The notes: generated by a model not told the origin, from the sequence alone. Shown: positions 24,419-31,392, counted from the first letter of the stretch. The stretch: DNA of 64,000 nucleotides from an uncultured Pelagibacteraceae bacterium (GCA_902516345.1 CABXYJ010000002.1:1-64000), one strand, 5' to 3'. Translations and numbers: made by a program.

Positions 24419-24468
24419 TAAGTAAATTTTTTTTATTTTATCTCTCTAGATCCGAGAATGATCCGAGA
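24419..24468. repeat. Unit 1 left subterminal repeat containing GATCCGAGA-at-GATCCGAGA
   Basis: Matches 28687-28736; 32 bp perfect core TTTATCTCTCTAGATCCGAGAATGATCCGAGA (24437-24468). Confidence 0.9.
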
Positions 24469-24509
24469 GTTGTCCTATAAAATCCTATAAGAATATATAA
24501 ATTTAAATA

Positions 24510-24881
24510 CTATCTCCTTGCGTCATCCAACCTTAATGTATCACTGAAATCTTCAGGACCTGGACTGAAACTTGAATACAATACAATAATCAAAAAGATA
24601 ATTGCTACTCCCCAATAAATTGGCCTTAATGGTTTGTGAAATTCTTCTGAGTCTTTCTCACGAGCTTCCCGAGCCTTATAAAATTCTTGTCTTTTTTGAT
24701 TATAAATTCTCTCTAATTCCTCAGTTTGTTCTTTAGTTAAAATCGCTTTTTTATCAAATGGAAAAAGGCCATCTCTTAAATTATATGGATGAAATTGTGT
24801 GAATTCTTTAACATCATCTTCACCATATATCTTGGAATTTTTAGCCTTACTTAATATTTTTTTAAATTTTTCTTTATTCAT
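24510..24881 (-). CDS. Hypothetical protein with C-terminal TM segment
   Basis: ORF track; hydrophobic IYWGVAIIFLIIVLYSSF. Confidence 0.6.
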   Translation of the reverse strand: MNKEKFKKILSKAKNSKIYGEDDVKEFTQFHPYNLRDGLFPFDKKAILTKEQTEELERIYNQKRQEFYKAREAREKDSEEFHKPLRPIYWGVAIIFLIIVLYSSFSPGPEDFSDTLRLDDARR

Positions 24882-25550
24882 TTAAAAATTTTCTACAATT
24901 ATATTTGATAATTCTGTTTTAGAAACTTGAAATTTTTTTTCAAAATGATTTGATAAATTTAATCTTTCTTCCCAATTACTAGCCCTTATTTTTTTTATAA
25001 GTTTGATTGTTTTGTCATCATATTCAAATAAGTAATATGTCTCATTCCAAGGCATTCCAAAAGCATAGCCGACATCGATAAATAACTCATCTTTTCCATT
25101 TTTATTAAGATCTTTATCTATATAAAAATTAATATTTAAATATATTCTTCTATCTTTAAGATGTTTTCTGCCTTTAAAAAAATCAGTTCTAGAGTCGTAT
25201 TTTTCCTCATTTTTATAAAACACTTTAAAATAAGTATCATTCATACCTCGGCATCCATTATTTTCGTAAAAAACCAATTTAACACTGTTGTTTATAGACT
25301 GAGTTAGAATAATTTTTTTAAACCCATCAGAATCATATTTAGTATAGTTTATAGAAGTAAATTTTTTTTTATTAAAATAAAAACAATCCCCAGACCAACT
25401 TATACGCTTATTACTAGAAGGATTTTCATCCATAAATTTAGCAGCTTCTTTGTAATTTTTATAACCATCATCAGCAAAGTCATATTCTTTAGCGAGACTT
25501 ATATTTATTGAAAGTAAGGATAATAGTAAAATAATAAAAAATTTTTTCAT
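24882..25550 (-). CDS. Secreted hypothetical protein
   Basis: ORF track; signal peptide MKKFFIILLLSLLSINISLA; abuts 24881. Confidence 0.6.
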   Translation of the reverse strand: MKKFFIILLLSLLSINISLAKEYDFADDGYKNYKEAAKFMDENPSSNKRISWSGDCFYFNKKKFTSINYTKYDSDGFKKIILTQSINNSVKLVFYENNGCRGMNDTYFKVFYKNEEKYDSRTDFFKGRKHLKDRRIYLNINFYIDKDLNKNGKDELFIDVGYAFGMPWNETYYLFEYDDKTIKLIKKIRASNWEERLNLSNHFEKKFQVSKTELSNIIVENF

Positions 25551-25569
25551 AGTTTAAACATCATTTCAT

Positions 25570-26010
25570 CTAATAAAATTTACACAATTCATCAACATAT
25601 TCGTAACTAGGTGCAATACCAACTTTATTACCTTTTAAATCAAAAATTGTTAATCTAGTTGGCTCAGCCCAACCTCCTGCAAAAAAATATTCTTTAACAC
25701 TAGCAAAAAAAATTGGTTGTTCTTTAATCATTGTGCACTCCTTTGCAAATTTGCCAAAACTAAAAACTCTTTTAATTGAAGTCCTTGAATTTGTTTTGGG
25801 ATCAACTAGCCATAGTTCCTGATAAGTAACTTCTTGAGTGATTACATATTTTTCATTTTCTATCTCATATTTTTCAATTATATCTCCATATTTCTCAGCG
25901 TTAAAAGATTTATAACTTGCGGCCCAAGCTTTATCTTCACCTATCAGTAAGCTTATTGTTAATATAAAAATGAATAAAATAGAAAATGGATACAAAAACC
26001 ATTGTTTCAT
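25570..26010 (-). CDS. Exported hypothetical protein
   Basis: ORF track; N-terminal signal, co-directional with neighbours. Confidence 0.55.
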   Translation of the reverse strand: MKQWFLYPFSILFIFILTISLLIGEDKAWAASYKSFNAEKYGDIIEKYEIENEKYVITQEVTYQELWLVDPKTNSRTSIKRVFSFGKFAKECTMIKEQPIFFASVKEYFFAGGWAEPTRLTIFDLKGNKVGIAPSYEYVDELCKFY

Positions 26011-26129
26011 TAATAAACTCTAAACTTAAATATTGTCTTTATTGTGTTAATTTTTTGTAACCAGTACTTCATCTAATTGCTTTCCCAGTGTTTACTCATT
26101 TTTTTGAAAGGACAACAAATTCATTTTTT

Positions 26130-28903: not shown

Positions 28904-28920
28904 CCAATTTGTCATTCTTA

Positions 28921-28991
28921 TAACTCACTTTATTTATAACTCAACCTAGTAAACAAAAGCAAATTAATATGGTGTATGACTGGTGTATGAC
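28921..28991. repeat. Unit 2 left subterminal repeat containing GGTGTATGAC-t-GGTGTATGAC
   Basis: 71 bp, no gaps, about 60/71 identical to 31322-31392 by hand count. Confidence 0.9.
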
Positions 28992-29175
28992 CCAAGTCAT
29001 CCGAGGGGTCCCAAATGGAAGTCAAAAAAGCTTAGGTTTTTAAAGGTCAATACCCTTAAATATATAAAGGGGTCCCACTACTTTCCCCTGTGTTGAAATA
29101 TTTATATTTTAAAGTTATTCTTATTAATATAATTTATAAAAATTAACTATAAAACAAATCTCTTTAACTAATCAA

Positions 29176-30465
29176 ATGTATATAAAAAAATATTATCTAC
29201 TAGCAAAACATACGCTTTTTCCAATATGCAGAAGTTTAACTGGCGATGGTTTTAGAAAATCCTTAAAAATTATAAAAAAAGAATTTCCTAAATTAAATAT
29301 ATACAAAGTGGCATCTGGAACTCGAGTCTTTGATTGGCATGTACCTCCTGAATGGAATATTAAAGATGCGTATATTTTAGATAAAAACAATAAAAGAATT
29401 ATTGATTTTAAAAATAATAATCTCCATTTAGTAGGATACTCCATTCCTGTTAATAAATATTTTTCAAAAAAAGAACTTTTTAATCATATTCATTCCTTAC
29501 CCGAGCAACCAAAAGCAATTCCATATATTACTTCATATTATAAAAAAATTTGGGGATTTTGTGCAAACCACAATGAAAAAATAAAATTAGAAAAAAACTA
29601 TAAAAATTCAGACAAATTTAAAGTTGTTATAAAATCTAATTTAGATTCAAAGGGCCATTTAAATTATGGAGAATTAATTTTAAAAGGAAAATCAAAACAA
29701 GAAATCTTAATTTCTACTTATTTATGTCATCCTTCAATGGCAAATAACGAATTGTCTGGTCCAATAGTTTCTATGTCTTTAATTAAACATTTTAGTAGGA
29801 TAAAAAATCTAGAAAAAACTATAAGATTTATTTTTATACCTGAAACCATCGGTGCAATTACTTACCTTAGTAAAAATTTAAATTATCTAAAACAAAATAC
29901 CATAGGAGGATACCTCCTAAGTTGTATTGGAGATGACAGGCAATATGGTTGTATGCTCTCAAAATATGGAAATACTCCGTCTGATAAAGCTATTATTATG
30001 GCATTTAAAAGTTTAAAAATTAAATTTAAAAAATATTCTTTTTTAAGAAGAACTGCCGATGAAAGACAATATAACTCTCCAGGGATAGATTTACCAATAG
30101 CATGTATATATAGATCAAGAGATGGTGCATACCCTGAATACCATACATCATTAGATAATTTTAGTTTAGTAACTGAAAGTGGTGTTAAAGGTGGTTTTAA
30201 AGTTGCTAAAACAGCAATTAATATACTCCTTAAAAAAATCATACCCCAAAATAAAATTTTGTGTGAACCAAAAATGGATAAAAGAAATCTTTACCATTCA
30301 TTATCAACAAAAAAAATAAAGAAAATTTATCAACATTATTTGAATTTTTTACAATATGCTGATGGAAAAAATGATTTAGAGAGTATTTCTATTTTATTAA
30401 ATATTAAGATAAGTTTAGCATATAAAATATATAATGTTTTAAAAAAGAAAAAATTGGTCCTTTAA
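29176..30465 (+). CDS. DUF4910-like/aminopeptidase-fold protein
   Basis: LFPICRSLTGDGFRKSL, RVFDWHVPPEWNI, STYLCHPSMANNELSGP, RRTADERQYNSPGIDLP, EYHTSLDN. Confidence 0.8.
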   Translation: MYIKKYYLLAKHTLFPICRSLTGDGFRKSLKIIKKEFPKLNIYKVASGTRVFDWHVPPEWNIKDAYILDKNNKRIIDFKNNNLHLVGYSIPVNKYFSKKELFNHIHSLPEQPKAIPYITSYYKKIWGFCANHNEKIKLEKNYKNSDKFKVVIKSNLDSKGHLNYGELILKGKSKQEILISTYLCHPSMANNELSGPIVSMSLIKHFSRIKNLEKTIRFIFIPETIGAITYLSKNLNYLKQNTIGGYLLSCIGDDRQYGCMLSKYGNTPSDKAIIMAFKSLKIKFKKYSFLRRTADERQYNSPGIDLPIACIYRSRDGAYPEYHTSLDNFSLVTESGVKGGFKVAKTAINILLKKIIPQNKILCEPKMDKRNLYHSLSTKKIKKIYQHYLNFLQYADGKNDLESISILLNIKISLAYKIYNVLKKKKLVL

Positions 30466-30466
30466 A

Positions 30467-31324
30467 ATGAAAATTCTATCTCATAAATTTTTTAATTCTA
30501 AAAAAGAAACTAGTTATTATTCTCAATTATATAAAAAAATTAATTTTAAAGAATCTTATCCAGCAGATGTAAAAAGACTGGAAATCTTTAAGTCACTTAT
30601 AAAGAAACATAAACCAAAAACTATAGTTGATGCCGGATGTGGAGCAGGTATGCCATTAATTCAAATAAAAAAAATGGGATTTAATATTACTGGTTATGAT
30701 AAAGCAAAAAATATGGTTAATGAAGCAAAGGCAAATTTAATTAAATATAAACTCCCAGAAAAATTAATTGATATTGGGAATTTTGAAAATCCAAAGCATA
30801 TAAAAGATAATTCAATAGATTGTATTTTGGGTATGGGAACTTTCTATTACTCAAAAAATTTTATCCAAACATTAAAAAACCAAAGAAAAAAACTAAAAAA
30901 AAATGGAAGATTAATTTTTTCATTGAGAAATCAATTATTTGATATTGCTACTTTAAATGATTATTCAATTAAATTTTTTTCAAATTTATATGAAATAAGC
31001 AAAACTAAAAATACATTAAAAAAAAAATATTTAAGATTATTTCAAGGATATTCTGATAGAAAAAAATTTAAATTAAAAAACATTGATGACAGCCAAGTTT
31101 ACTCTAAAACATATAATCCTCTCACAATTGAAAATCTAATTTTGAGTAAAGTAGGACTAAAATGTAATGGAATATATTTTTATCACTTTCACGCCTTGCC
31201 TCCAATATTTGAAAATATTGATAAAATTAATTTTAGAAAGCAATCTTTCAAGATTGAAAAACCAAATGACTGGAGGGGTTTTTTTATTGCCTCTGGTTTT
31301 GTCATTGACTGTCAAAAAAAATAA
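30467..31324 (+). CDS. Class I SAM-dependent methyltransferase
   Basis: TIVDAGCGAGMPLIQIKKMGFNITGYDKA; 1 bp after the preceding gene. Confidence 0.85.
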   Translation: MKILSHKFFNSKKETSYYSQLYKKINFKESYPADVKRLEIFKSLIKKHKPKTIVDAGCGAGMPLIQIKKMGFNITGYDKAKNMVNEAKANLIKYKLPEKLIDIGNFENPKHIKDNSIDCILGMGTFYYSKNFIQTLKNQRKKLKKNGRLIFSLRNQLFDIATLNDYSIKFFSNLYEISKTKNTLKKKYLRLFQGYSDRKKFKLKNIDDSQVYSKTYNPLTIENLILSKVGLKCNGIYFYHFHALPPIFENIDKINFRKQSFKIEKPNDWRGFFIASGFVIDCQKK

Positions 31325-31392
31325 CTCGCTTTATTTATAACTTAACTTGTTAAATTAATACAAATTAATTCGGTGTATGACTGGTGTATGAC
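31322..31392. repeat. Unit 2 right subterminal repeat containing GGTGTATGAC-t-GGTGTATGAC
   Basis: Direct copy of 28921-28991, starts at the stop codon of the methyltransferase gene. Confidence 0.9.

What the first reader, a model, noticed from the sequence alone, without database searches (positions are those of the whole stretch)
24419..31392. Each unit has its own subterminal repeats, each holding a tandem ~10-bp motif, at matching distances from att
Seen directly: unit 1 has 50-bp direct repeats (24419-24468, 28687-28736) ending in GATCCGAGA-at-GATCCGAGA. Unit 2 has 71-bp direct repeats (28921-28991, 31322-31392) ending in GGTGTATGAC-t-GGTGTATGAC. The sequences are unrelated, but both are two copies at 11-bp period. 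The right-hand pairs end 124 bp (unit 1) and 126 bp (unit 2) before the next att copy. The left-hand pairs start ~80 and ~67 bp after att. Paired ~10-bp direct repeats flanking a core resemble arm-type sites of tyrosine recombinases. Conserved layout with different motif sequence suggests two elements recognised by related recombinases of different arm specificity.
Basis: partly seen in the sequence, partly recalled or inferred. Interest (0 to 1): 0.85.

Follow-up and report, generated by a model that had tools for sequence, protein, structure and literature searches.

The report
Integrase-less cassettes carrying recombinase address tags
At one tRNA gene, SAR11 ocean bacteria stack small mobile gene cassettes that have no integration enzyme of their own; each carries a paired short 'address' at both ends that varies between cassettes and matches the equally variable DNA-reading domain of rare integrases on other elements, which suggests that borrowed enzymes move them.

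Summary
Two tandem units sit upstream of tRNA-Leu(UAA); each has its own ~9-10 bp motif, doubled at 11-bp period, near both ends.

The pattern is general. In 115 SAR11 arrays (147 units), 93 units carry such a pair at fixed distances on both sides (about +102 and -146 from the core); control windows give 0-2%. The motif is the same at both ends of a unit and differs between units (34 distinct 9-mers; 0 of 20,000 permutations reach the observed match).

Only 2 of the 147 units encode an integrase. Rare integrase-bearing elements (three recovered as circles) have the same layout around a complete attP. Some cargo units share their motif exactly: 10 with one such element, 9 with another. The ends of window unit 2 match those of a specific integrase element.

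These integrases have a beta-beta-beta-alpha N-terminal domain. It is hypervariable, is swapped between catalytic domains, and tracks the motif (partial r 0.74, nine elements). An integrase-less unit is 98.5% identical in two species whose flanking chromosome is 76% identical.

Best reading: arm-type sites acting as addresses for integrases supplied in trans. Binding and excision are untested.

The parts
24280..24365 (-). tRNA-Leu(UAA) gene, the integration target
   Evidence: ARAGORN
24326..24368 (+). att copy 1: 43 bp, the tRNA 5' half through the anticodon loop plus 3 bp
   Evidence: direct repeat D1; the core occurs only 3 times in the assembly
24369..28860 (.). unit 1, no integrase; most ORFs on the - strand (towards the tRNA)
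24449..24468 (+). unit 1 left arm pair GATCCGAGA-AT-GATCCGAGA
   Evidence: layout class A
26130..27158 (-). unit 1 cargo: 342-aa protein with T5orf172/MUG113 and HTH matches, endonuclease-like
   Evidence: Pfam and PHROGs
28717..28736 (+). unit 1 right arm pair GATCCGAGA-AT-GATCCGAGA
28861..28903 (+). att copy 2, 43 bp identical to copy 1
28904..31518 (.). unit 2, no integrase; two cargo genes on the + strand
28971..28991 (+). unit 2 left arm pair GGTGTATGAC-T-GGTGTATGAC
   Evidence: left end aligns to the G183 integrase element
29176..30465 (+). unit 2 cargo: 429 aa, DUF4910/DUF2172 with winged HTH
   Evidence: Pfam
30467..31324 (+). unit 2 cargo: 285 aa SAM-dependent methyltransferase
   Evidence: Pfam
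31372..31392 (+). unit 2 right arm pair GGTGTATGAC-T-GGTGTATGAC
   Evidence: right end aligns to the G183 integrase element
31519..31539 (+). att copy 3, 21-bp core only

Best explanation
The paired motifs are arm-type binding sites of a family of ~515-560-aa tyrosine recombinases. Integration is at the anticodon-loop half of tRNA-Leu(UAA), a core shared by all members. Which element ends are paired is set by the arm motif, read by the integrase's N-terminal beta-sheet domain. That domain diversifies and is exchanged between catalytic domains, giving many specificities over one common core. Most elements at the site, including both window units, are integrase-less cargo cassettes that keep only core plus arms (about 125-150 bp per end). 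They are excised and inserted by integrases supplied in trans by rare elements carrying an integrase and a primase-helicase with the matching arm motif. Shown: layout, within-unit motif identity, absence of integrase, exact motif matches to integrase elements, circular attP forms, domain fold and covariation, and transfer of an integrase-less unit between species. Inferred: arm binding, catalysis in trans, and the vehicle between cells.
For: Layout: 93 of 147 units have period-11 pairs on both sides at the modal distances; same-width control windows 0-2%, other periods 0-0.7%. Within-unit motif identity: at least 9 nt shared by 92% of units versus 11% between units, 0/20,000 permutations. Integrase absent from 145 of 147 units by profile search; integrase family found in 8 of 399 genus genomes and not in G000. 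Integrase elements with the same layout: G495 (TGTGCTGGT; 10 cargo units share it) and G249 (GTTTCTAGT; 9 cargo units). Circular forms with an intact R arm-core-L arm: L016 and L052, and L062 whose contig starts inside the right arm region; terminal overlaps of 99-123 bp. Unit 2 ends match the G183 integrase element (R 64, L 40; shuffle maximum 28), far above the other eight; unit 1 left end matches L052 (50 versus 28). Domain: beta-beta-beta-alpha at residues 69-121; PDB matches to lambda Int, Tn1549 Int and, weakly, P4-like arm domains. Covariation: L057/L061 catalytic 97%, N-domain 53%, different arms; L016/L068 N-domain 95%, same arms; partial r 0.74, p 0.0002, n=9; 100 pairs with catalytic identity of at least 85% have N-domain 66% and core-binding domain 94%; identical N-domains occur on 58-62% identical catalytic domains. 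Mobility: 2,872-bp integrase-less unit 98.5% identical, host flank 75.7%.
Against: No binding, excision or trans-complementation has been shown. Only 20 of 145 integrase-less units have an exact integrase partner in what could be searched; no integrase element with GATCCGAGA or GGTGTATGAC was found. Unit 1's right end does not align above shuffles to any integrase element. In class A integrase elements the right arm lies inside the integrase reading frame and often has a 12-bp period, unlike the 11-bp period in cargo units. 21 units show no motif pair. The covariation test rests on nine elements that are not fully independent.
Confidence: 0.78

Rival explanations
1. The units are decayed, immobile remnants of former integrase-bearing elements (a graveyard at a hotspot). 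The paired motifs are fossil arm sites and nothing is mobilised now.
For: No integrase in 145 of 147 units. G327 has a left end with no recognisable core; some third cores are truncated (window 31519).
Against: No integrase remnants by profile search. The motif pairs remain identical at both ends in most units. A 2,872-bp unit with intact arms is 96-98.5% identical in three species whose flanks are 75-85% identical, at different array positions. Cargo ORFs are long and diverse.
Confidence: 0.12
2. The units are moved by the short (~283-aa) integrases of temperate pelagiphages that use the same tRNA-Leu core; the paired motifs serve something else (replication, packaging or regulation).
For: Viral contigs with such integrases share the core (e.g. 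L018, L022, L025).
Against: Their core-flanking DNA lacks the period-11 pairs at +102/-146. The pairs occur on both sides of attP only in the elements carrying the long integrase, whose N-domain tracks them.
Confidence: 0.06
3. The units move between cells by homologous recombination across the conserved tRNA-side flanks after phage- or vesicle-borne DNA uptake; site-specific recombination happens rarely or only at origin.
For: Known for replacement islands in aquatic bacteria (general knowledge); flanking genes are conserved across the genus.
Against: Near-identical units sit beside 75%-identical flanks and at different array positions, with the alignments running from core to core.
Confidence: 0.1

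Closest known systems
Cis-mobilizable elements (CIMEs) and tandem accretion (Streptococcus ICESt1-type; described in PMC5704250); integrase-less ssrA islands of Dehalococcoides (PMC3146451)
   Same: Tandem islands at one gene; many lack integration genes but keep att sites; presumed mobilised by a related element.
   Different: CIMEs are described as decayed elements moved in cis by accretion. Here units carry different cargo, keep a paired arm motif, and match integrase elements located in other genomes. Dehalococcoides islands use serine recombinases, which have no arm-type sites of this kind (general knowledge).
Mycobacteriophage Cluster K arm-type sites (PMC3203893)
   Same: Paired 11-bp arm sites; closely related integrases at the same target differ in arm sequence together with N-terminal residues.
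   Different: There few positions differ among a few phages that each encode an integrase. Here ~34 motifs, wholesale domain swapping, and mostly integrase-less carriers.
Tycheposons (Hackl et al. 2023, paper not held; cited in PMC10872708 and PMC11389934)
   Same: Marine, tRNA-integrated, tyrosine recombinase, cargo and satellite-like versions; reported in co-occurring microbes (from memory of the abstract).
   Different: Relation of the recombinases not tested. PMC10872708 describes them as 4-200 kb elements with a recombinase; these units have a median of 2.5 kb and no recombinase. I know of no report there of variable arm codes (from memory).
Integron cassettes / CALINs (PMC11389934)
   Same: Arrays of small cargo cassettes without integrase, moved in trans, nearly all genes in one orientation.
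   Different: attC hairpins were not looked for; the repeated site here is a tRNA half, with arm-type sites around the core.

Membership tests
Tyrosine-recombinase (lambda Int-type) attachment systems | Core identical in att copies, target gene left intact | tested here: met
   43-bp and 21-bp core copies; intact tRNA-Leu
Tyrosine-recombinase (lambda Int-type) attachment systems | Arm-type repeats flanking the core on both sides in attP | tested here: met
   circular L016 and L052, and contigs L057, L061, L068
Tyrosine-recombinase (lambda Int-type) attachment systems | Integrase with N-terminal arm-binding domain and C-terminal catalytic domain with conserved R, H and Y | tested here: met
   PF00589 match; invariant R485, H508, Y518; fold
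Tyrosine-recombinase (lambda Int-type) attachment systems | Integrase binds the arm sites | not testable with these tools
   only covariation
CIME | Flanked by attL/attR, no integration genes | tested here: met
   145 of 147 units
CIME | Derived by decay and moved in cis with an adjacent element | tested here: inconclusive
   most arrays, including the window, have no adjacent integrase element; G183 does
Tycheposon | Family-specific deep-branching tyrosine recombinase and hallmark genes | not tested
   reference paper and sequences not held
Phage satellite | Dependence on helper-phage packaging | not testable with these tools
   primase-helicase and RusA-like genes in integrase elements; packaging genes not demonstrated
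Integron cassette array | attC hairpin recombination sites and IntI | not tested
   attC not searched; the repeated site is a tRNA half and the integrases found are of another family

The most novel reading that the evidence does not exclude
SAR11 holds a genus-wide economy of integrase-less gene cassettes in which the arm-type site is a diversified, swappable address: dozens of mutually distinct motif/N-domain pairs share one tRNA core, so that each rare integrase mobilises in trans its own subset of cargo cassettes while ignoring neighbours stacked at the same site.
Probability: 0.6. Interest if true: 0.88.

Novelty: new variant of a known kind. Interest (0 to 1): 0.76.

Why it matters
SAR11 is among the most abundant bacteria in the sea, with a streamlined genome and few recognisable mobile elements. 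This gives a concrete, testable account of how it gains and loses small cargo: proteases, caspase-like proteins, restriction systems, surface proteins. It also supplies a natural data set of paired arm motifs and recognition domains over a constant core, from which the recognition code of the integrase arm-binding domain could be worked out, and a simple sequence rule for finding such cassettes elsewhere.

Tried and rejected
The one exact hit for GATCCGAGA pairs in viral contigs (L003, high-GC) is an unrelated tandem repeat. No viral-contig hit for unit 2's motif. Adjacent units were tested for avoidance of the same motif: 0 of 15 pairs identical, but chance is only 3.6%, and array L158 has two units with TGTGCTGGT, so an exclusion rule is not supported. 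A promoter in the left end reading into the displaced tRNA was not found by consensus scan. No relative of the integrase in GenBank phages. The single PF00589 gene in the host assembly (L009) does not match the element integrase profile; it may be a housekeeping Xer but was not classified. The tycheposon paper could not be read.

Full report
Observation. The window is a SAR11 contig (G000:C2). Upstream of a tRNA-Leu(UAA) gene (24280-24365, minus strand) the tRNA's 5' half is repeated at 24326-24368, 28861-28903 and, shortened to 21 bp, at 31519-31539. Each carries the motif pairs exactly where described, with four copies of each motif in the window against far less than one expected. Neither doubled motif occurs elsewhere in the assembly even with two mismatches.

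Generality. Searching family genomes for unit 1's pair gave two other species. In both it lies beside tRNA-Leu(UAA), with quite different cargo and no recognised integrase. A search of 399 genus genomes for the 20-bp core found it in 286, and about 120 of these (my count from the table) carry two or more copies. I fetched further regions with repeated cores and, with the window and G128 (L010), analysed 115 arrays with 147 units longer than 500 bp (median 2.5 kb). In 93 units there is a period-11 pair at about +102 after the left core and another at about -146 before the right core; 17 more have only the right pair and 10 only the left. Windows of the same width elsewhere in the left end give 0-2%, and other periods at the same place 0-0.7%.

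Three layout classes appear: A (+102/-146, the majority; window unit 1), B (about +89/-148; window unit 2, L149, L167 and the G183 integrase element) and C (+82/-76, one constant motif AACTACACTAG; L093, L107, L168, L173, L190, L197). In class A the left 9-mer takes 34 forms around a loose consensus KNTNCNRGT. Left and right motifs of a unit share a run of at least 9 nt in 92% of units against 11% for mismatched units, and no permutation of 20,000 reached the observed mean. So the layout is conserved while the motif is a property of the individual unit.

The units lack an integrase. An integrase profile run on six-frame translations of all 147 units found it only in the two units already known to hold one. 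Cargo is diverse: among the longest ORFs are trypsin-like proteases, autotransporters, caspase-domain and MORN proteins, and restriction-modification genes. In 131 of 139 units the longest ORF points towards the tRNA.

Integrase-bearing elements. Viral contigs with the same core fall into kinds. Those with short pelagiphage-type integrases (e.g. L022) lack the period-11 pairs. L016, L052, L057, L061, L062 and L068 carry them and encode a 515-549-aa tyrosine recombinase next to the right arm, with a DUF5906 primase-helicase-like gene identified in L016, L061 and L062. L016, L052 and L062 have terminal overlaps of 99-123 bp, as expected of circular molecules, so they show an attP: right arm, core, left arm. 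Integrated relatives exist in G495, G249 and G183, and one at a tRNA-Ser-like site in G663. Left and right motifs agree within each element. In class A elements the right arm lies in the first codons of the integrase gene. Ten integrase-less units carry the G495 motif TGTGCTGGT and nine the G249 motif GTTTCTAGT at both ends; one carries the L052 motif. Both ends of window unit 2 align to those of the G183 integrase element (scores 64 and 40, shuffles at most 28), far above the other eight elements; the left end of unit 1 aligns to L052 (50 against 28). The two window units are thus addressed to two distantly related integrases.

The recognition domain. AlphaFold2 gives a beta-beta-beta-alpha unit at residues 69-121 (block pLDDT about 80-88) ahead of the core-binding and catalytic domains. 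Foldseek finds lambda Int, Tn1549 Int and Xer enzymes, and with weak E-values (0.05-0.17) the arm-binding domains of P4-like integrases. Across 58 homologues, 100 pairs with at least 85% identical catalytic domains have 94% identical core-binding domains but only 66% identical N-domains; conversely, identical N-domains occur on catalytic domains only 58-62% identical. The most variable residues of that stretch (92-94) lie in the last strand of the sheet. L057 and L061 are 97% identical in the catalytic domain, 53% in the N-domain, and differ in arms; L016 and L068 share arms and N-domain. Over nine elements with known arms, motif similarity follows N-domain similarity after removing catalytic similarity (partial r 0.74, permutation p 0.0002). 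This is small and partly non-independent, but in the predicted direction.

Movement. A 2,872-bp integrase-less unit is 98.5% identical between G696 (L090) and G422 (L103), where it is first and second in the array, while the adjacent chromosome is 75.7% identical; a third species has it at 96-97%. Discrete units without integrase therefore move between species. The integrase family was found in only 8 of 399 genus genomes and 5 of 397 family genomes, and not in the window's own (77% complete) assembly, so supply from another element is the simplest reading. The carrier between cells is unknown.

Prior knowledge. Tandem accretion and integrase-less islands are known as CIMEs (PMC5704250) and in Dehalococcoides (PMC3146451). 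Arm motifs changing with N-terminal integrase residues are known on a small scale in Cluster K mycobacteriophages (PMC3203893). Tycheposons are the nearest marine elements, but their defining paper was not available, and membership was not tested. What seems new is the scale and arrangement: many arm specificities over one core, carried mostly by cassettes that encode no integrase. I therefore class it as a new variant of a known kind.

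Noticed in passing
L073-L111 and L142-L213, units of 1-5 kb: In 131 of 139 units the longest cargo ORF points towards the tRNA (binomial p about 1e-29), as in integron arrays; both genes of window unit 2 point the other way.
   Followed up: partly
L130, L131, L016, L052 (first ~20 codons of the integrase ORF): The right arm site is embedded in the integrase coding sequence (peptide xKLGTxLE or DTQPAQP), often with a 12-bp, four-codon period, so coding and binding constraints overlap.
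   Followed up: partly
L093, L107, L168, L173, L190, L197: A third class of small units (1.0-1.6 kb) uses one constant motif AACTACACTAG at +82/-76; no integrase partner found.
   Followed up: no
L017, L028, L029, L042, L043, L045, L046, L048: Higher-GC viral contigs with the same core carry 10-bp-period repeats (GGACACC- or ACGCCAC-like) at about +72 to +83, probably arm sites of another integrase family.
   Followed up: no
L132 (G663:C2): A related integrase element sits at a tRNA-Ser-like site with arms CTTCAAGTTTACTTCAAGTT, next to cargo of the caspase/MORN type also seen at tRNA-Leu.
   Followed up: partly
L073 3067-18301 and L087 1452-12468: 11-15 kb intervals between cores share phage-like genes with the 2.8-kb unit of L010 (PD-(D/E)XK nuclease region) but no integrase was found.
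   Followed up: no
units at right end, -50 to -25 from the core: Many right ends have 10-bp-period repeats such as AGACTATTAGAGACTATTAGAGACT close to the core, possibly excisionase-type sites.
   Followed up: no
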